A DNA stretch of 64,000 nt from Persephonella sp. IF05-L8 (GTDB taxonomy: Bacteria; Aquificota; Aquificia; Aquificales; Hydrogenothermaceae). Each line of letters opens with the position of its first letter. The first letter of the stretch is position 1. The stretch covers positions 1,083,501-1,147,500 of the forward strand of contig NZ_JNLJ01000001.1 of assembly GCF_000703045.1 (NCBI RefSeq), in the 5' to 3' direction. Under the pieces are notes generated by a model. It worked only from the letters and a program-made list of their open reading frames with translations. It was not told the DNA's origin and did not search any database. The position numbers and the translations under genes are program-made. Below are positions 25,051 through 33,431 of this stretch, one piece after another.

Positions 25051-25079
25051 TTGACAAATGAATTTTCATTCATTATTTT
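25051..25079 (+). promoter_or_regulatory. cbiM promoter with operator in the spacer
   Basis: TTGACA (25051-25056) and TATTTT (25074-25079) are 17 bases apart. The spacer contains the palindrome ATGAAT-TTTC-ATTCAT (25058-25073), so a bound repressor would block polymerase. The same palindrome occurs before hypB. Half-sites of this kind are typical of TetR-family operators, and a tetR gene lies in the same block. Confidence 0.75.
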
Positions 25080-25110: not shown

Positions 25111-25779
25111 ATGCATATCCCTGACGGATACCTCTCTCCAATGACATATATACCTTCATACGTAGTGGCTGTGCCCCTTATGGCTTATGGAATAAAAAAA
25201 CTAAAGGGAGAGTTAAATGACCAGACCCTCCCTCTAATATCTTCATTAGCAGCAATGTCTTTTCTAATTATGATGATAAATATCCCTATTCCTGGGGGAA
25301 CAAGCGGACATGCCATTGGAGCTGCTGCTATCTCTATTTTGATTAATCCCTGGATTGCTTTCATATCTATAAGTCTTGTTTTACTGATACAGGCACTTAT
25401 TTTTGGGGATGGTGGGATAACAGCCTGGGCTGTTAACTCCCTTGCATTAGGATTTGTTGCTTCTTTTGTTGCTTATTACTCCTTTAAAGTTTTATCTAAA
25501 CTTAATGAAAATATAGCCCTATTTATCTCTGGGTGGCTTTCTATTGTGGCTGCTTCTTTTGTTGTTGCAGTTTTCCTTGGAATTCAGCCTGTTATAGCCC
25601 ATACCCCTGATGGAAAACCTTTATTCTTTCCTTTTGGACTGGAAATTACAATTCCAGCTCTTGTTGGTTCCCATATACTTTATTTTGGTGCTGTTGAAGG
25701 ATTATATACCTTACTTGTTGTTAAATTTATTGAGAAAATAAAAAATCCCTTTCTTAAAGGGAGTATAAAAGATGTATAA
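25111..25779 (+). CDS. cbiM: Nickel/cobalt ECF transporter substrate-binding component CbiM
   Basis: 222-residue membrane protein beginning MHIPDGYLSP, the signature N-terminus whose amino group and His2 bind the metal in CbiM/NikM. About six helices are visible, with GTSGHAIGAA and HTPDGKP loops typical of the family. Nickel is the likely substrate because hypB and a hydrogenase subunit follow. It overlaps cbiN by 8 bases. Confidence 0.92.
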   Translation: MHIPDGYLSPMTYIPSYVVAVPLMAYGIKKLKGELNDQTLPLISSLAAMSFLIMMINIPIPGGTSGHAIGAAAISILINPWIAFISISLVLLIQALIFGDGGITAWAVNSLALGFVASFVAYYSFKVLSKLNENIALFISGWLSIVAASFVVAVFLGIQPVIAHTPDGKPLFFPFGLEITIPALVGSHILYFGAVEGLYTLLVVKFIEKIKNPFLKGSIKDV

Positions 25780-26068
25780 AAAATTTCTTTTGCCTGTGGT
25801 TTTACTGCTGATAGCTGTTCCACTGGGATTACTTACAGATAAACCTGCATGGGGAGAGTGGGAACAAAGTTTTTATAAACAGGTTATCGGTTTTATACCT
25901 GAAGGAATGAAAAATGAAGGTTTAATCAAAGCTATAATTCCAGACTATTCTTTGGATGGTCTTCCTGAAGTTCTCGCTTATTATCTGTCAGCTATAGTTG
26001 GAATTTCAGTTATATTCTTATTTTTTTATATGCTAAAAGGATTTAACAGGTCTAAAGGTGAAGGATAA
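25772..26068 (+). CDS. cbiN: CbiN/PDGLE-type component of the nickel/cobalt ECF transporter
   Basis: 98-residue protein with one N-terminal and one C-terminal membrane helix. The extracytoplasmic loop ends YSLDGLPEVLAYYLSAIVG, matching the PDGLE/CbiN-like accessory component, with SLDGL in place of PDGLE. It is needed for activity of CbiMQO transporters. It overlaps cbiM upstream and the cbiQ gene downstream. Confidence 0.78.
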   Translation: MYKKFLLPVVLLLIAVPLGLLTDKPAWGEWEQSFYKQVIGFIPEGMKNEGLIKAIIPDYSLDGLPEVLAYYLSAIVGISVIFLFFYMLKGFNRSKGEG

Positions 26069-26609
26069 ACTATTTTTTGTCCTGTATTTGCTTGGCATAA
26101 TTGCTCTTACTTCTGTTCATAATCTATGGTTTTTCCTTGGTTTCTTGTTTGTTCTGTTTGTCATTTCAGGAAAGAGTATTGTTCATGCTTTGAAAAAAAC
26201 AATTCTATCTATAATTCTGTTTAACAGTATCGTTAGCATAAGCTATATTATTTACTCTATTTTTAAAAATCAGGAATGGTTTGAGTATATACTCCTTCTT
26301 AATTTAAGGGTTTTTACCATAACATTTATGACATTTCTTTTTATCAAGAGGGTAAATATCTTTAAAGCTTTATCCTTTTCAAAAACCCTTCAATTTTTGT
26401 TGGTTCTTTCTTACAGCCAGATTTTGACCTACAAAAAATCCTTTAATGAGTTTAAACTGGCACTAAAAAGCCGAACCATTCAGAAACCTGAAAGAAAAGA
26501 TATGTATAATTTTATCTCAAGGGTATTTTATTTCTTTTTGAATAAGTCTATGAATAACTCAAAAGAAATTTCACAGGCTATGAAATCAAGGGGATTTTTT
26601 ATAGATTGA
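26058..26609 (+). CDS. cbiQ: ECF transporter transmembrane component CbiQ
   Basis: 183-residue membrane protein with helices in the N-terminal half and the coupling-helix region near the C-terminus (FNEFKLALKSRT and NNSKEISQAMKSRGF). The latter matches the AxRSRG-type motif of EcfT/CbiQ that docks on the ATPase. It is shorter than the usual 220-260 residues. It overlaps cbiN by 11 bases and cbiO by 4. Confidence 0.85.
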   Translation: MKDKLFFVLYLLGIIALTSVHNLWFFLGFLFVLFVISGKSIVHALKKTILSIILFNSIVSISYIIYSIFKNQEWFEYILLLNLRVFTITFMTFLFIKRVNIFKALSFSKTLQFLLVLSYSQILTYKKSFNEFKLALKSRTIQKPERKDMYNFISRVFYFFLNKSMNNSKEISQAMKSRGFFID

Positions 26610-27382
26610 GTATGGTAAAAGTAGAAAATCTTTTTTTTAAATATGAAAACAAGGAAGTTTTAAAAGATATATCCTTTTCCATTAAAAAAGGTGAAAAAGT
26701 TGTTCTCCTTGGTATAAATGGAAGTGGAAAATCAACACTTTTAAAAATTTTAAATGGTCTGATTTTTGCCCAACAAGGAAAGTATTTTTATAAAAATACA
26801 CAAATAACCTCTAAACAGCTTAGGGACAAAAATTTTGTGAGGCAGTTTAGAAAAGAGGTTGTTCTCCTTTTTCAAAATCCTGACAGTATGCTTTTTAATC
26901 CTACTGTTTATGATGAGATTGCTTTTGGCCTTCGCCAGCTTAGCTTAGATAATATAGACGAAAAGGTCAAATACTGGGCTGATAAACTGGGGATTTACAA
27001 ATATTTAGACAGACCTCCTTTTGAGCTTTCCGGGGGAGAAAAACAAAAGGTCTGCCTTGCATCACTCCTTGCTTTAGAACCAGAAGTTTTACTGCTTGAT
27101 GAGCCTACAGCAAACCTTGACCCACGAAGTATAGGCTGGCTGGTTGATTTCCTGTATGAGCTTGATATTACAGTTGTTACCACAACCCACAACTTAAGCC
27201 TGTCTTTAGAGCTTGGGGAGAGGGGACTTGTTTTATCAGAAAATCATCAGCTTATATATGACGGTAATCTTGAGGAGTTTATTAAAGATATAGACAGGCT
27301 AAAAGAGGCCAACCTGATACATATCCACAAACACAGACACGGTAATGTTATCCATACCCACTACCACATCCATGACTTTTGA
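26606..27382 (+). CDS. cbiO: ECF transporter ATPase CbiO with histidine-rich tail
   Basis: 258-residue ABC ATPase: Walker A GINGSGKST, Q-loop LLFQNPDSMLF, signature LSGGEKQKV, Walker B VLLLDEPTANLDP and switch TTTHN. The last 20 or so residues are histidine-rich (HIHKHRHG, HTHYHIHDF), unusual for an ABC ATPase, and could hold or sense nickel at the cytoplasmic face. It ends about 50 bp before hypB, which has its own operator. Confidence 0.92.
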   Translation: MSMVKVENLFFKYENKEVLKDISFSIKKGEKVVLLGINGSGKSTLLKILNGLIFAQQGKYFYKNTQITSKQLRDKNFVRQFRKEVVLLFQNPDSMLFNPTVYDEIAFGLRQLSLDNIDEKVKYWADKLGIYKYLDRPPFELSGGEKQKVCLASLLALEPEVLLLDEPTANLDPRSIGWLVDFLYELDITVVTTTHNLSLSLELGERGLVLSENHQLIYDGNLEEFIKDIDRLKEANLIHIHKHRHGNVIHTHYHIHDF

Positions 27383-27401
27383 TTTAGGTTATACTATATT
27401 A

Positions 27402-27417
27402 ATGAATATCCATTCAT
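27402..27417 (+). promoter_or_regulatory. Operator before hypB
   Basis: Palindrome ATGAAT-ATCC-ATTCAT, with both half-sites and spacing identical to those in the cbiM promoter. A TATATT or TATACT -10 candidate lies just upstream (27390-27400) and GGAGG starts 2 bases downstream, so binding would block initiation. This suggests hypB has its own regulated start besides read-through from cbiO. Confidence 0.7.
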
Positions 27418-27430
27418 CAGGAGGATTAAA

Positions 27431-28192
27431 ATGTGTAAAGATTGTGGTTGTTCTATAACGGATACACATCATCACCATGACCATGAACACCATCATCACC
27501 ATCATCATGGAAATCCAACCCTTGAGGATAAAAAAACTGTTGAGGTAATTACAAAAATCCTTGATGCAAATGATAAACAGGCAGAAAGCAACAGAAAACA
27601 TTTTGACCAGCACGGAATTTTTGCAATAAATCTTATGAGCTCTCCTGGTGCTGGGAAAACAACCCTTTTGGAAAAAACCATTGAACTGCTTGGAGATGAG
27701 CTGAAAATTGGTGTTATAGAAGGAGATTTAGAGACTAATAGGGACGCAGAGAGAATAAGAGCCAAAGGGGTTCCTGCATATCAAATCACAACCGGGCAGG
27801 CATGTCATCTTGATGCTTTTATGGTTCATGATGGAATTCATCATATGCCCCTTGAAGAGCTTGATATTGTATTTGTGGAAAATGTTGGAAACCTTGTTTG
27901 CCCTGCTTCTTACGATATAGGAACACATCTGAATGTTGTGCTACTCTCTGTTCCTGAAGGAGATGATAAACCGGCTAAATACCCTGTGATGTTTAGAAGT
28001 GCAGACCTGATGCTTATTACAAAGATAGACCTTCTTCCTTACTTTGATTTTGATATCAAAAAGGCTATTGAAGAGGCAAGAGCTTTAAATCCTAAAATGG
28101 ATGTTATTCAGGTTTCCACAAAAACAGGAGAAGGCTTGGATAAATGGATTAATTATATAAAGCTAAAATCTTCTCTGAGAAGCATAGTATAA
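27431..28192 (+). CDS. hypB: Hydrogenase nickel-insertion GTPase HypB
   Basis: 253-residue GTPase that delivers nickel to [NiFe]-hydrogenase precursors. The N-terminus has the high-affinity nickel motif CKDCGC (C2, C5, C7) and a run rich in histidine around residues 13-26. Then follow the P-loop SSPGAGKTTL, GDLETNRDAERI, ENVGNLVCPASYDIG and ITKIDLL. The His-rich stretch is a nickel store in related proteins. It lies between the nickel transporter and the hydrogenase subunit gene. hypA is not in the window. Confidence 0.95.
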   Translation: MCKDCGCSITDTHHHHDHEHHHHHHHGNPTLEDKKTVEVITKILDANDKQAESNRKHFDQHGIFAINLMSSPGAGKTTLLEKTIELLGDELKIGVIEGDLETNRDAERIRAKGVPAYQITTGQACHLDAFMVHDGIHHMPLEELDIVFVENVGNLVCPASYDIGTHLNVVLLSVPEGDDKPAKYPVMFRSADLMLITKIDLLPYFDFDIKKAIEEARALNPKMDVIQVSTKTGEGLDKWINYIKLKSSLRSIV

Positions 28193-28236: not shown

Positions 28237-28268
28237 TATATTTGTATAAAAAAAGCAGGGGTTTTGAA

Positions 28269-28871
28269 TTGTCTAAAATAAAGAAATTTTCAAAGGAAGA
28301 AAAAAAACAAGAAATAGTAAGAACAGCTTGTAAACTGTTTGCAGAAAGGGGGTACTATAATACAACTATTCCAGATATAGCAGAAGCTATGGGAATGAGT
28401 GTTGGAAATCTTTATAACTATTTCAGCTCAAAAGAAGAACTTGCCAAATATATAATGAGATATTCTTCAAGACTTCTTGGGGATGAGATTAGGAAAATAA
28501 ATGAAGAAAACATAACCACCAGAGAAAAAATTTACAAAGTTGTAAGAAGATTTTTTGAAATTGCTCAACAACAACCTGAGCTGATTGAATATTTTCTTAG
28601 AGTATTTTTGTCAAACAGAGAAGTTTTTGAGGAAGGATGTGAAGGATTTTTGTGTGTAAGTGAGGTAGTAACGGAGCTTATGCTATTTCTGGAAGAGGGA
28701 GCGAGAAAAGGAGACCTTAGACAACAGGATTTCTTCCCTGCCTTTGTTACACTGATGGGTCCCCTTGGTGGAATGGTTTTCCTGCAGGGAGAAAATGTCA
28801 TGCCAAAAACACCTATAGAATACTCAGATGAACTTGCAGAGAATATCTGGCGTGCTTTGAAAAATGACTAA
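28269..28871 (+). CDS. TetR-family transcriptional regulator
   Basis: 200-residue regulator. The N-terminal helix-turn-helix is complete: RTACKLFAERGYYNTTIPDI, then AMGMSVGNLYNYFSSKEELA. The C-terminal ligand-binding domain is all-helical. I chose the TTG at 28269 because AGGGG lies 7 bases upstream. An in-frame TTG at 28242 has no ribosome site. It sits inside the nickel/hydrogenase block and overlaps the hydrogenase gene by 8 bases. It is the obvious candidate to bind the two shared operators, though its ligand is unknown. Confidence 0.85.
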   Translation: MSKIKKFSKEEKKQEIVRTACKLFAERGYYNTTIPDIAEAMGMSVGNLYNYFSSKEELAKYIMRYSSRLLGDEIRKINEENITTREKIYKVVRRFFEIAQQQPELIEYFLRVFLSNREVFEEGCEGFLCVSEVVTELMLFLEEGARKGDLRQQDFFPAFVTLMGPLGGMVFLQGENVMPKTPIEYSDELAENIWRALKND

Positions 28872-29793
28872 AAAAACTCTATTGTGGCTTCAAGGGTTAA
28901 GCTGTAATGGAAATTCCCAGTCTCTCTTAAATGCGGAAAACCCATCTTTTTATGAAATTTTTTCAAAAGTTGAGATTATCTTCCATCCGGAAATTAGTTA
29001 TAAAGAAGATATAGAGAAAGTTTTAGATAAAGTTTTAACAGGAAAGAAAAAGGTAAATTTTCTGGTAATAGAAGGTAGTATAACAACAGATAAGCGTTTC
29101 AACAGAATAGGAGAACTTTCAATAGGTGAAATTGTTTTAGAGCTGAAGGACAAAGTTGATTATATTATTGCAGCTGGTAATTGTGCATCATTTGGTAATA
29201 TTCCTGCTACTTTTACAGGAAATCCTGATGTAAAAGGTTTACAGTTCACCTTCAAAGAAAAAAAAGGTTTTCTACCTCCTGATTTTAAAACCAAATCAGG
29301 ATATCCAGTTATAAATATCCCCGGATGTCCTATGCATCCTGCATGGTTTATGCAGACTTTAATAGCTCTTCTTGAAGGCAGAGATATACTTTTAGATGAA
29401 TTTAATAGACCAAAAGAACTTTTTATGTATCTTTCCCACGATGGATGTATCAGGAATGAGTATTTTGAGTGGAAAGCAGAGGCAGAGGAGTTTGGACATA
29501 AGGAAGGTTGCCTTTTTTATAATCTTGGATGTAGAGGTCCCATGACCCATGCACCTTGTAATAAAATCCTATGGAATAGAATATCTTCTAAAACAAGAGC
29601 AGGAATGCCCTGTATTGGCTGCACAGAGTTTGATTTTCCATTAAGGGAAGACTTTTTTGAAACAAAGAAAAATATGGGAATTCCAGAAGAAGTTCCTCTG
29701 GGGGTTTCTAAAAGAGCTTACATCACAATAACAGGAGTAGCAAAGACCCTGAAAAACGAAAGGGTTTCTAAAAAATTAGAAGAAACCAATTAG
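28864..29793 (+). CDS. [NiFe]-hydrogenase small subunit-like protein without Tat signal
   Basis: 309-residue iron-sulfur subunit. Proximal-cluster ligands are C14, C107 and C155, but the fourth position is Asn (SCNGN, N17). Distal-cluster ligands H192, C195, C216 and C223 and medial ligands C232, C250 and C253 are present. The missing twin-arginine leader implies a cytoplasmic protein, as in group 2 or sensory hydrogenases. A large subunit normally follows at once, but the strand switches here and none is encoded in the window. It may partner with a distant subunit or act as a regulator with the adjacent TetR protein. Confidence 0.8.
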   Translation: MTKKTLLWLQGLSCNGNSQSLLNAENPSFYEIFSKVEIIFHPEISYKEDIEKVLDKVLTGKKKVNFLVIEGSITTDKRFNRIGELSIGEIVLELKDKVDYIIAAGNCASFGNIPATFTGNPDVKGLQFTFKEKKGFLPPDFKTKSGYPVINIPGCPMHPAWFMQTLIALLEGRDILLDEFNRPKELFMYLSHDGCIRNEYFEWKAEAEEFGHKEGCLFYNLGCRGPMTHAPCNKILWNRISSKTRAGMPCIGCTEFDFPLREDFFETKKNMGIPEEVPLGVSKRAYITITGVAKTLKNERVSKKLEETN

Positions 29794-29810
29794 TTGGTTG
29801 ATTTATCAAT

Positions 29811-30425
29811 TTATTTTAACTTTTTTAAGTATTCTCTGGCTATAACGTTTTCAGGGTCTAATATTAGAACATCATTAAATATTTTTTTTGCCTCTTCTTT
29901 TTTTCCAGTAGCAAACTTTAATAAACCAAGTTCAACCAGGAAGTTTGTATCTGTAGGGTATAATGCAAGCATCTTATTGATAACTTTTTCTGCAAGGGTA
30001 AATTTATTTTGCATCCTTAGAACGAAGGATAATCTTAAATTTCCATAGTAATTGTAAAAATCTATATTTAATATCTGGTAACAGACCTTTTCTACATCAC
30101 TGTATCTATTTTGAGACAGTAGTGGTAAAGTATATCCTAATTTTGCTTCTACAGAAGAAGGTAATAATTTCATGGCTTTTTCATAATGATAAATGGAGTT
30201 TGCATATTTTTTGTCAAGGTAATAGAGCCATCCTAATCTTAAATTTATTGTATACCCGTTTGGGTATTCCTTATATAAAGGTATTAATGCTTTTATAGCA
30301 TCTTCATAGTTCCCACTTTTCTCGTATTGATAAGAACGGTAATAAGCATTCTTTATGTCTTCATACTCTATTCCAAATGAGAAATAGGATAGTATTAAGA
30401 TTGATAGTAAAATCTTCTTAAACAT
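29811..30425 (-). CDS. Secreted tetratricopeptide-repeat protein
   Basis: 204-residue protein with a signal peptide (MFKKILLSILILSYFSFG) and about four TPR units, for example YSYQYEK-type helices, GWLYYLDKKYANSIYHYEKA, then LLKFATGKKEEAKKIFNDVL. It is probably periplasmic and binds other proteins. It is the last gene of the six-gene operon, 10 bp after the outer-membrane barrel gene, with GAGG before its ATG. It shares no enzyme motif, so its job is likely scaffolding of the envelope part of the system. Confidence 0.75.
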   Translation of the reverse strand: MFKKILLSILILSYFSFGIEYEDIKNAYYRSYQYEKSGNYEDAIKALIPLYKEYPNGYTINLRLGWLYYLDKKYANSIYHYEKAMKLLPSSVEAKLGYTLPLLSQNRYSDVEKVCYQILNIDFYNYYGNLRLSFVLRMQNKFTLAEKVINKMLALYPTDTNFLVELGLLKFATGKKEEAKKIFNDVLILDPENVIAREYLKKLK

Positions 30426-30435
30426 GTTCTAACCT

Positions 30436-31344
30436 CTAAAATGTAGCTCCAAGAGTGAAAAATAAAGATGTTAATTCTGAGGTTTTTGTGGAATTAATTT
30501 CTTTAAATCTGTCCTGACTTATTCCTGCACTAATTCTTGTTTTTTTGTTCATGTTATAGCCTATAGAGAAGGCATATCCAGATTTATATTTTTCAGAAAG
30601 ATTATACACAACAAAACCATCATTTTTTACAGCAAAAGTCTGTTCTCCTATCCAGCCTGATAAACTTAAAGTAAATTCTTTGTAATAGTAGGATATATTC
30701 TGTTCTATAGAAAGAAAGTTCTTACCAAAGCCCACATCATCAGAAAGTCCTATGTAATAACCTCTTGTCTCAAGATAGAAACTGCCGTAATTGTAGTAAT
30801 CTCCTATATAAAATCCTAATTTAGGTGATACCTGAAATACAGAAAGACCTGATATTGTCTTGGTAACAGTAGTAGAAGAAAATTTCCCTCTCATATAGGT
30901 GTAGGTTTTATTAATCTCATAATTACCATAGTAAGAATACGAAAAATCCACACCTATATTTCTTTTGTATTGTTCATACAGCTCTCCTCCAACAAGAAAT
31001 ATAATTCCCCCATCTGTAGCTTTATCGTCAGAGCTTATATAGTGCAGTCCTGCTTTAATCTGGGTGTTAGGTAAGGAATAATTCCTATATAAGCCAGTAT
31101 AGTCAAACTGATTGAGAGTTCCTCCATCAAGATACTTGATATTGGTGTAGCTTACACTTCCTTCTAATGTATGTTGATTGTTTATTCCCATATATCCGAA
31201 CAATCCCATATAGTAGCCGTAGTCTTTTGCTTCAGAATTAGAGTAATTTAGATAACCGCCGAAAACCATAGCATCATAGTTGATATTTTCTATTCCGTAA
31301 GCTAAAGGGAATATTAAAAGAGTAGTCGCTAATATTTTTTTCAT
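30436..31344 (-). CDS. Outer-membrane beta-barrel protein
   Basis: 302-residue protein with a signal peptide ending near FPLAYG and repeated amphipathic strands rich in Tyr, Gly and Ser (MVFGGYLNYSNSEAK, TKTISGLSVFQVSPKLGFYI). It ends LFFTLGATF with a terminal Phe, the C-terminal signal for barrel assembly. No known transporter family is recognised. It overlaps the transporter-M23 gene (TAATG) behind GGAGG. It could be a pore for, or a target of, the product of the operon. Confidence 0.65.
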   Translation of the reverse strand: MKKILATTLLIFPLAYGIENINYDAMVFGGYLNYSNSEAKDYGYYMGLFGYMGINNQHTLEGSVSYTNIKYLDGGTLNQFDYTGLYRNYSLPNTQIKAGLHYISSDDKATDGGIIFLVGGELYEQYKRNIGVDFSYSYYGNYEINKTYTYMRGKFSSTTVTKTISGLSVFQVSPKLGFYIGDYYNYGSFYLETRGYYIGLSDDVGFGKNFLSIEQNISYYYKEFTLSLSGWIGEQTFAVKNDGFVVYNLSEKYKSGYAFSIGYNMNKKTRISAGISQDRFKEINSTKTSELTSLFFTLGATF

Positions 31345-33431
31345 TATACTCCTCCTATTTTCTCTTTAAGTTTAATTTCTATATTATCAACTTTTATACT
31401 TTTAAATCCAATGAAATCATCCAGTTCAACAAGAACCTCTTTATTAATGTTTAATATAGGAAATTCAACATTTCCTTTTATTTTATTTTCAGAAATGAAC
31501 TCACCTTTATATTTTACTTTCGCAAAGTTATGATTAAAAGAGCTAATAAAAAGAATTACAGATTTTTCAATCTCTGATGTTACAGTTTTGATAGGAATAT
31601 AGTCTTCCCACTGAATACCTTTTTTATAAAAGAGAGGTAGCCTTGGAAGAGCAATAAAAAACAGTTTTAGATAGGGGTCTTTGCCGTCAAATCTGTAAAA
31701 GTAGAATGTTCCTTCATATTTTCCAAAGTAAAGCTCCCCTTTCCCTGAAGCAAAGTAAAATGTGCCGTCTGGAGCCATTTTTACAGTAAGGTGGAGGGTA
31801 TCAATCTTCTGACCATCTTTTAGAACATCAAAAGAAAACTGGTAATCTAAGATAAATGACATCTTTAGTTCCAGTGATTTATCAGGGAAAACAGGTTCAA
31901 CCGTCTCCCCTTCTTTTGGAAGGTTGTTTGAATAAAACATCTTTCCGGATATATAACTAACGAAACTGAAAGGAAGAGTATAAGAACCTATTTCATCAGA
32001 AGGCTGAACCTGAATGTGAATATGTGGCTGTGGTGAGTATCCAGAATTTCCACACAGTCCTAAGAAAGTTCCAATTTCTACCCAATCCCCTTCCTTAACC
32101 TTTATAGAATGTTGAGCGAAATGGGATATCTCAACATAAAATCCCCTAATATCATGAATGATAACCAGATTTCCCCAGTTGTTATCCTTATCAACCTGAC
32201 CTATTGGATTGTCAGGGAGGTGGGAAATCACCTTTACTACCCTTCCCCTTACAGGAGACAGAACAGGCTTTCTGTAAGCATAGTAATCCTCAAGATTTAA
32301 CCCTTCATTTTTGTAGGTTTTTCCTTCTTCGTCTGTTATAACAAAGTCGTATGCATATCTCCAGCTTCCTTTATGTGTCCATTTACCGTCAAATCCCTGC
32401 CAGACAGTCCATTTTCCAGAGAAAGGCAGATGAAGTGTTCTTTCATAACCTTTGAACCTGCTAACATTTGTTAGATAAAAATCCAGTGTTTCTTCAGGGG
32501 TTTTTCTTATTACCCGTGCAATTAAAGGAAAACCAAGAATACCCAGAACATATAGAATAGTTAAAGAGATAAAATTAAAAGGTAAAGTAAATGCTGGAAT
32601 TCCATACAACGACCAGAATGTTTTAACAGCTGAAAGTATAATTGTGGAAATTACTACTCCTATAATGGCGATAAAGTAAGTTTTTACAGATGGAATAAGG
32701 AAAATTCCTCCTAATACCATAGCAATTAAAATAAAATTAAAATGACTTATATCTGAAAATGCCTGGTAAAAAGAGCCTGTTAAAAAACCAGCCACCAATG
32801 TTCCTGTATAGTATCCTATGACAGAGAGCATAAATAAAATTCTTGAGATTAAAAATATAGTTATGGCAAATATCAGTCCAATAAAGGCATCAGGTAAAAA
32901 GAGTATTGTGCCAAGAGATTTTAGATAACCTATTATCCAAAGAGGTAAATAGCTTTCCAGAAAATCAAAATTTGTATGGGGATATAAAGATACAACGAAG
33001 AGATTAGAATAATTTGAGGCTGATAGATAAATTATTGAACTTATGATAACAAAAGGTAAGCTGAAAATCGGAAGTCTAAGATAGTACGAAAATACACTAT
33101 GAAGCATTACAGAAAAAATTAAAGTAAAAATTCCAGCTGTTATAGTAAAAAATATAGTAATAGGTGTTATTTTGAATAAATAACCTATAGACAATCCGAC
33201 AAGCAGCGGGTTATAGGTATAAAAACCAGAAGAAAGGAATTCTTTTTCCATATTTAAAAATCTTGCAAATAGATATGCAGATATAAAGGATATAATTCCA
33301 GCAAGACCTATATTGGGATTTATAAAAGTAGATAGAAGAAAAATCCCACCTGCAATATAATTTTCTACAAAAAATATCTCTGAATAACTGTTTAAAACAG
33401 CTTTCAGGTGGGATTTATAGGAGTTTTTCAT
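31344..33431 (-). CDS. Urea-transporter-like membrane domain fused to M23 (LytM) domain
   Basis: 695-residue fusion. Residues about 20-305 are a polytopic membrane domain like the urea transporter family (YNPLLVGLSIGYLF, AGFLTGSFYQAFSD). Residues about 335-490 are an M23/LytM domain (SPVRGRVVKV, GNLVIIHDIRGFYVEISH, H470-I-H472). Residues 500-695 are beta-rich and unassigned. In active M23 enzymes the first zinc ligand is a His four residues before the Asp. Here D362 is preceded by R358, so catalysis may be lost or changed, and the domain may only bind peptidoglycan. It lies third-to-last in the six-gene operon. Confidence 0.78.
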   Translation of the reverse strand: MKNSYKSHLKAVLNSYSEIFFVENYIAGGIFLLSTFINPNIGLAGIISFISAYLFARFLNMEKEFLSSGFYTYNPLLVGLSIGYLFKITPITIFFTITAGIFTLIFSVMLHSVFSYYLRLPIFSLPFVIISSIIYLSASNYSNLFVVSLYPHTNFDFLESYLPLWIIGYLKSLGTILFLPDAFIGLIFAITIFLISRILFMLSVIGYYTGTLVAGFLTGSFYQAFSDISHFNFILIAMVLGGIFLIPSVKTYFIAIIGVVISTIILSAVKTFWSLYGIPAFTLPFNFISLTILYVLGILGFPLIARVIRKTPEETLDFYLTNVSRFKGYERTLHLPFSGKWTVWQGFDGKWTHKGSWRYAYDFVITDEEGKTYKNEGLNLEDYYAYRKPVLSPVRGRVVKVISHLPDNPIGQVDKDNNWGNLVIIHDIRGFYVEISHFAQHSIKVKEGDWVEIGTFLGLCGNSGYSPQPHIHIQVQPSDEIGSYTLPFSFVSYISGKMFYSNNLPKEGETVEPVFPDKSLELKMSFILDYQFSFDVLKDGQKIDTLHLTVKMAPDGTFYFASGKGELYFGKYEGTFYFYRFDGKDPYLKLFFIALPRLPLFYKKGIQWEDYIPIKTVTSEIEKSVILFISSFNHNFAKVKYKGEFISENKIKGNVEFPILNINKEVLVELDDFIGFKSIKVDNIEIKLKEKIGGV

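What the first reader, a model, noticed from the sequence alone, without database searches (positions are those of the whole stretch)
28864..29793. Orphan hydrogenase small subunit with Asn in the proximal-cluster motif
The gene has all distal and medial cluster ligands, but N17 replaces the second cysteine of the usual CxxC. Actinobacterial-type hydrogenases have Asp at this position. No large subunit lies nearby, and a TetR gene overlaps the start. This could be an unusual cluster, a sensor, or part of an enzyme assembled from distant genes.
Basis: partly seen in the sequence, partly recalled or inferred. Interest (0 to 1): 0.65.

Follow-up and report, generated by a model that had tools for sequence, protein, structure and literature searches.

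The report
Split group 2d hydrogenase small subunit
The gene is an ordinary small subunit of a poorly understood hydrogen-splitting enzyme whose partner gene lies 682 kb away because a conserved operon was broken in this species, and the regulator gene it overlaps probably controls all the cell's hydrogenase genes through a DNA site also found in a second bacterial phylum.

Summary
In detail: window 28864-29793 encodes an intact [NiFe]-hydrogenase small subunit with C14-N-G-N17 in the proximal motif, no large subunit nearby, and a TetR gene overlapping its start by 8 bp. The interpretation mostly falls. Asn17 is the family rule: 44/44 group 2d and 11/11 Huc-type (2a) small subunits compared have it. 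The "missing" large subunit exists: a 456-aa group 2d HuaL lies 682 kb away on the same contig. In relatives (Hydrogenothermaceae; Sulfurimonas and Sulfurovum plasmids) tetR-huaS-huaL is contiguous, often followed by uptake hydrogenase hynSL. In this species the operon is split between huaS and huaL; a second assembly of the species shows the same junctions. So this is a group 2d HuaSL enzyme encoded at two places; both genes are intact and co-evolve.

New lead: an inverted repeat (ATGAATGANTATTCATT, at most 1 mismatch) occurs at only four places in this 1.83-Mb genome: just upstream of cbiM, hypB, hynS and hypC. It recurs before hydrogenase genes in relatives and, exactly, in Sulfurovum (another phylum). 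The huaS-linked TetR is its likely ligand (inferred). HuaL lacks a C-terminal maturation peptide, like H2 sensors, while HuaS keeps three Huc quinone-site residues: sensor versus quinone reducer stays open but testable.

The parts
28864..29793 (+). huaS: small subunit of a group 2d [NiFe]-hydrogenase (309 aa), proximal motif C14-N-G-N17; no twin-arginine leader (cytosolic)
28242..28871 (+). TetR-family regulator overlapping huaS by 8 bp; conserved immediately upstream of huaS in Hydrogenothermaceae and in Sulfurimonas/Sulfurovum
27431..28192 (+). hypB (nickel insertion GTPase), first gene of hypB-tetR-huaS
   Evidence: TIGR00073 E 9e-93; order conserved
27401..27417 (-). inverted-repeat operator candidate (ATGAATGGATATTCATT, 1 mismatch) just before the hypB ribosome-binding site
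25057..25073 (-). inverted-repeat operator candidate (ATGAATGAAAATTCATT, 1 mismatch) next to a TTGACA promoter-like site upstream of cbiM
25111..27382 (+). Ni/Co uptake genes: cbiM 25111-25779, PDGLE/cbiN-like 25772-26068, cbiQ-like 26058-26609, ATPase 26606-27382
   Evidence: Pfam CbiM 4.9e-58, PDGLE 3.6e-8, CbiQ 5.5e-5 (below cut-off), ABC_tran 2.6e-32
29794..29810 (.). Operon break point: huaS is followed by an unrelated convergent TPR gene (29811-30425, minus strand) instead of huaL; huaL is outside the window at G000:C1:429135-430502 (minus strand)

Best explanation
The gene is huaS, the small subunit of a cytosolic group 2d [NiFe]-hydrogenase of a Persephonella-type Aquificota bacterium. 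It pairs with HuaL, encoded 682 kb away at C1:429135-430502, directly upstream of the periplasmic uptake hydrogenase genes hynSL. The ancestral order was hypB-tetR-huaS-huaL-(hynS-hynL-cytb); in this species a rearrangement separated huaS from huaL (shown by comparison). Electrons from the Ni-Fe site of HuaL should pass through a proximal cluster with Asn at the fourth ligand place, a medial [3Fe-4S] and a His-ligated distal cluster in HuaS (inferred from ligands). The overlapping TetR protein most likely represses or tunes the hydrogenase regulon (nickel uptake, hypB-tetR-huaS, hynSL, hypCDE) by binding ATGAATGANTATTCATT sites just upstream of those genes (sites shown; binding inferred). HuaSL itself most likely has a regulatory or auxiliary role in this regulon rather than being the main energy-yielding hydrogenase (inferred, about 50%). 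The confidence below is for identity, partner and split; the regulon binding I put near 0.7.
For: Identity: small-subunit tree places it in a 2d clade (SH-aLRT 98) apart from 2a/Huc (98) and 2b sensors (99). Asn17 in 44/44 2d, 11/11 2a. Partner: besides a weak third match (probably complex I) the genome has two large-subunit genes, one group 1 and one 2d; huaL is adjacent to huaS in many relatives and in two Campylobacterota plasmids; S and L distances correlate r=0.96 over 253 pairs, r=0.97 for pairs with this genome. Split is real: the same-species assembly G092 shows huaS joined to the TPR gene (99.8% over the junction) and huaL joined to the transporter gene. Both genes intact; 10 nonsynonymous vs 44 synonymous changes on this branch for huaS, 22 vs 63 for huaL, like the unsplit sister. 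Regulon: at most 1 mismatch, four places genome-wide, before cbiM, hypB, hynS, hypC; 22/26 hua-bearing and 0/15 hua-less Hydrogenothermaceae carry sites (p 6e-8, not corrected for relatedness); exact matches before hynS and before the gene at 30548 in Sulfurovum. HuaL ends at CSVCTTH with 0 residues after it, as HoxC/HupV.
Against: No expression, binding or activity data. TetR-operator binding is inferred from linkage and co-occurrence only. A TetR homologue also occurs in three Aquificaceae without hua, so it may track hydrogenases generally. Conserved Huc quinone residues in HuaS argue for an electron-transferring enzyme rather than a pure sensor. The 2d label rests on the small-subunit tree and literature, not on the HydDB classifier.
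Confidence: 0.88

Rival explanations
1. HuaSL is a metabolic enzyme, not a regulatory one: it reduces naphthoquinone at a Huc-like site in HuaS, or supplies reductant for CO2 fixation.
For: K204, Y219, Y286 match the three Huc menaquinone-site residues (HucS Lys212, Tyr229, Tyr301; PMC10017518) and are K 42 and R 2 of 44, Y 43/44, Y 43/44 in 2d, but Glu and Phe replace the two Tyr in 2b sensors. HydDB lists carbon-fixation reductant as one option (PMC5037454).
Against: HuaL lacks a C-terminal maturation peptide like sensors; the A. aeolicus enzyme is hard to detect in cells (PMC10052474); huaSL is down-regulated with H2 in a Campylobacterota isolate (PMC12286921).
Confidence: 0.4
2. The small subunit works alone or with another partner (for example HynL) as a sensor or scaffold.
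For: It is physically separated from any large subunit in this genome and overlaps a regulator gene.
Against: The cognate HuaL is present, intact and under purifying selection; HynS-HynL form their own adjacent pair.
Confidence: 0.05
3. huaS is a decaying remnant after the operon was broken.
For: The hypB-tetR-huaS promoter no longer drives huaL; the break is lineage-specific.
Against: All ligands intact; 10 nonsynonymous vs 44 synonymous changes on the branch, similar to the unsplit sister (6 vs 28); the second assembly of the species has the same reading frame over the 297 residues covered. The branch mixes time before and after the split.
Confidence: 0.06
4. Assembly misjoin: huaS and huaL are really adjacent.
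For: Contigs break near this junction in G089 (in the toxin-antitoxin-like insert) and in G092 (within huaS).
Against: Both novel junctions occur with 99.7-100% identity in the separate same-species assembly G092.
Confidence: 0.03

Closest known systems
Group 2d ('Aquificae-type') [NiFe]-hydrogenase, HuaSL / A. aeolicus hydrogenase III
   Same: Small-subunit clade, CxGN motif, no Tat leader, short large subunit ending at CxxCxxH, encoded beside hyp genes and often a group 1 hydrogenase
   Different: Here the small and large genes are 682 kb apart
Huc, group 2a (solved: 7UTD/7UUR)
   Same: Asn at the fourth proximal position, quinone-site residues Lys/Tyr/Tyr, overall sequence (E about 1e-74)
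   Different: Distal ligand His (Gln in Huc); HuaL has no C-terminal extension (15-20 residues in 2a)
HoxBC / HupUV H2 sensors, group 2b
   Same: Large subunit without C-terminal peptide; linked to regulation of hydrogenase genes
   Different: 2b small subunits keep CxxC and lack the two quinone-site tyrosines; 2b is described as histidine-kinase-linked, whereas here the linked regulator is TetR
Actinobacterial-type group 1h
   Same: Non-Cys residue at the fourth proximal position
   Different: Asp, not Asn; different clade

Membership tests
Group 2d [NiFe]-hydrogenase | Small subunit falls in the Aquificota/Campylobacterota clade, apart from 2a and 2b | tested here: met
   Tree, clade support SH-aLRT 98
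Group 2d [NiFe]-hydrogenase | HydDB classification of the catalytic subunit | not testable with these tools
   No HydDB classifier; label follows the literature on Aquificae-type and Campylobacterota huaSL
Group 2d [NiFe]-hydrogenase | Cognate short large subunit without C-terminal peptide in the same genome | tested here: met
   HuaL C1:429135-430502, 456 aa, ends CSVCTTH
Group 2d [NiFe]-hydrogenase | Small and large subunit genes adjacent (usual, not defining) | tested here: not met
   682 kb apart here; adjacent in most relatives
Group 2a (Huc) | Asn at fourth proximal ligand position | tested here: met
   11/11 2a and window
Group 2a (Huc) | Gln in place of the distal His | tested here: not met
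   H192 in the window; Gln in 11/11 2a
Group 2a (Huc) | Large subunit with C-terminal extension | tested here: not met
   0 residues versus 15-20
Group 2b H2 sensor | CxxC proximal motif and linked histidine kinase | tested here: not met
   CNGN; no kinase-like gene recognised among the ORFs between 24 and 35 kb (by eye)
Actinobacterial-type 1h | Asp proximal ligand | tested here: not met
   Asn

The most novel reading that the evidence does not exclude
HuaSL plus its overlapping TetR protein form a second kind of H2-sensing switch: the hydrogenase reports H2 or redox state to a one-component TetR repressor that controls nickel uptake, maturation and uptake-hydrogenase genes in two phyla, in place of the kinase used by HoxBC/HupUV.
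Probability: 0.25. Interest if true: 0.75.

Novelty: new member of a known kind. Interest (0 to 1): 0.42.

Why it matters
The gene as reported is an ordinary group 2d small subunit in an unusual, split arrangement. What adds value is that HydDB lists the role of group 2d as unresolved (reductant for carbon fixation, or regulatory). The conserved TetR linkage, the operator candidates in front of the nickel, hyp and hyn genes in two phyla, the sensor-like end of HuaL and the Huc-like quinone residues of HuaS turn that question into specific tests. The repeated separation of huaS from huaL suggests that strict co-transcription is dispensable for this enzyme.

Tried and rejected
AlphaFold2 on a 26-row alignment gave mean pLDDT 65 with residues 189-309 below 50, so no fold search was done. 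The idea that one inversion joined known neighbours was not confirmed: the transporter gene next to huaL has an orthologue elsewhere in sister G083, and the TPR gene next to huaS has no close orthologue there. A shared 10-bp GGTTGATTTA at both break points was seen by eye but not tested. A literature search for Asn at the proximal cluster found nothing, and the Huc paper text does not name the residue; the Asn was read from the solved-chain sequence. Resemblance of the palindrome to the Bacillus FadR box is from memory; a paper search did not help. One Pfam call failed on bad coordinates.

Full report
Observation. The ORF at 28864-29793 is a complete [NiFe]-hydrogenase small subunit. Its proximal motif is C14-N-G-N17; every other cluster ligand is present, including distal H192. 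A TetR gene (28242-28871) overlaps its start by 8 bp, preceded by hypB and Ni/Co uptake genes. There is no large subunit in the window. The named close relatives are Persephonella and other Hydrogenothermaceae assemblies.

Is Asn17 unusual? No. Among solved structures the best matches are the small subunit of M. smegmatis Huc, whose sequence reads CSGN at the same place. [quoted passage not shown] In an alignment of 85 small subunits, Asn is found in 44/44 members of the window's clade, 11/11 Huc-type (2a), and all 15 members recognised there as the hynS-type periplasmic group; CxxC is kept in HoxB and HupU (2b) and in the standard group 1 references, and Asp appears in the actinobacterial-type one. 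The tree puts the window protein in a 2d clade with support 98, next to 2a (98), with 2b outside (99). Two group 1 rows were mislabelled 2d in that call's group table; the clades are as drawn. Long branches elsewhere in that tree make the root and the group 1 side unsure.

The missing partner. A whole-genome search finds two large-subunit genes in addition to a weak third match that is probably complex I: a group 1 gene at C1:426084-427658 and a 456-aa gene at C1:429135-430502. The latter is 68-71% identical to genes directly next to huaS in G081, G088, G084 and G065, and 57-67% identical to such genes in more distant members of the family. The usual order in the family is hypB-tetR-huaS-huaL, often followed by hynS-hynL; tetR-huaS-huaL-hynS-hynL also occurs on Sulfurimonas paralvinellae and Sulfurovum mangrovi plasmids of another phylum. 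Subunit distances correlate at r=0.96 over 253 genome pairs. So the protein is HuaS, and HuaL is its partner.

The break. In G083, G072 and G089, close relatives, a DUF6364/PIN pair (a toxin-antitoxin-like module) sits between huaS and huaL; in G082 a different ORF of roughly 300 residues does. In this genome nothing of that pair was found next to either gene; huaS is followed by a TPR gene and huaL is preceded by an amino-acid-permease-like gene. The separate same-species assembly G092 has both junctions. huaS and huaL also lie apart in G094, G095 and G064, so separation has probably happened more than once; those are draft assemblies. Substitutions on this branch are mostly synonymous in both genes (44 vs 10; 63 vs 22), as in the sister (28 vs 6; 39 vs 13), so there is no sign of decay.

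What HuaSL does. Group 2d has an unresolved role, perhaps reductant for carbon fixation or regulation (HydDB, PMC5037454). The A. aeolicus enzyme is hard to detect in cells (PMC10052474). In a Campylobacterota isolate huaSL falls with H2 (PMC12286921). Two sequence features found here pull in different directions. Wherever the final CxxC motif was recognised in a 2d large subunit, zero residues follow it, as in HoxC and HupV, whereas 2a and group 1 have 7-24. But HuaS keeps Lys204, Tyr219 and Tyr286 at the places of the Huc menaquinone-site residues Lys212, Tyr229 and Tyr301. This mapping uses a constant offset of one between the alignment and the paper's numbers. These residues are almost invariant in 2d, while the sensors have Glu and Phe instead of the tyrosines.

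A regulon. Inspection of upstream regions showed a shared inverted repeat before cbiM, hypB and hynS. A whole-genome scan with ATGAATGANTATTCATT found exactly four places with at most one mismatch: those three plus one just before hypC of a hypC-D-E cluster, which had not been used to define the pattern. In the family 22 of 41 genomes have sites, against one control match in total; all 22 carry huaS or huaL, and none of the 15 genomes without hua do, including six that have a group 1 small subunit. Of 37 sites in other species with fetched surroundings, 29 lie next to hynS, hypB, hypC/D, cbiM or a HypF-like gene (my count). In Aquificaceae, where tetR is often unlinked, its homologue occurs with hua in 30 genomes and they disagree in only four of 64. 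These p-values ignore relatedness, and both may simply follow hydrogenase content: three Aquificaceae have the TetR without hua. In Sulfurovum, exact matches lie before hynS and before the gene at 30548, and in Sulfurimonas a one-mismatch match lies between huaL and hynS. That the TetR protein binds these sites is inferred.

Conclusion. An ordinary group 2d small subunit in an unusual gene arrangement; the Asn is a family trait. The strongest new lead is the hydrogenase regulon. That HuaSL reports to the TetR is possible but unshown. No report of this regulon was seen in the held library, whose coverage is partial.

Noticed in passing
L008 9789-11033 (G000:C1, group 1 hynS); also L011 17293-18528: The periplasmic uptake hydrogenase small subunit of this genome, its relatives and Sulfurimonas also has Asn instead of the second proximal Cys (DCAGN/DCDGN), although it is far from the 2a/2d clade in the tree.
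   Followed up: partly
L085 8035-8686; L088; L086/L087: A DUF6364/PIN toxin-antitoxin-like pair is inserted between huaS and huaL in three close relatives; absent at the split in the window's species.
   Followed up: partly
L008 2037-4163: A 708-aa protein with HypF-like zinc-finger motifs lies downstream of the hyn operon; a similar gene precedes hypF in Sulfurimonas and Sulfurovum.
   Followed up: no
L192 17196-17630: A PIN-domain-like gene sits between hypC and hypD in the hyp operon of this genome.
   Followed up: no
window 31344-33431: A 695-aa ORF looks like a urea-transporter-type membrane domain fused to an M23-like peptidase domain (by eye), beside a decarboxylase-like gene and an ATP-grasp-like gene.
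   Followed up: no
L043, L073, L125-L130, L138-L144: Many Aquificaceae 2d small subunits read CCGN, with an extra Cys right after the first proximal ligand.
   Followed up: no
L132, L133 (G075, G076): Two same-family genomes carry a Huc-type (2a) hydrogenase in addition to 2d.
   Followed up: no
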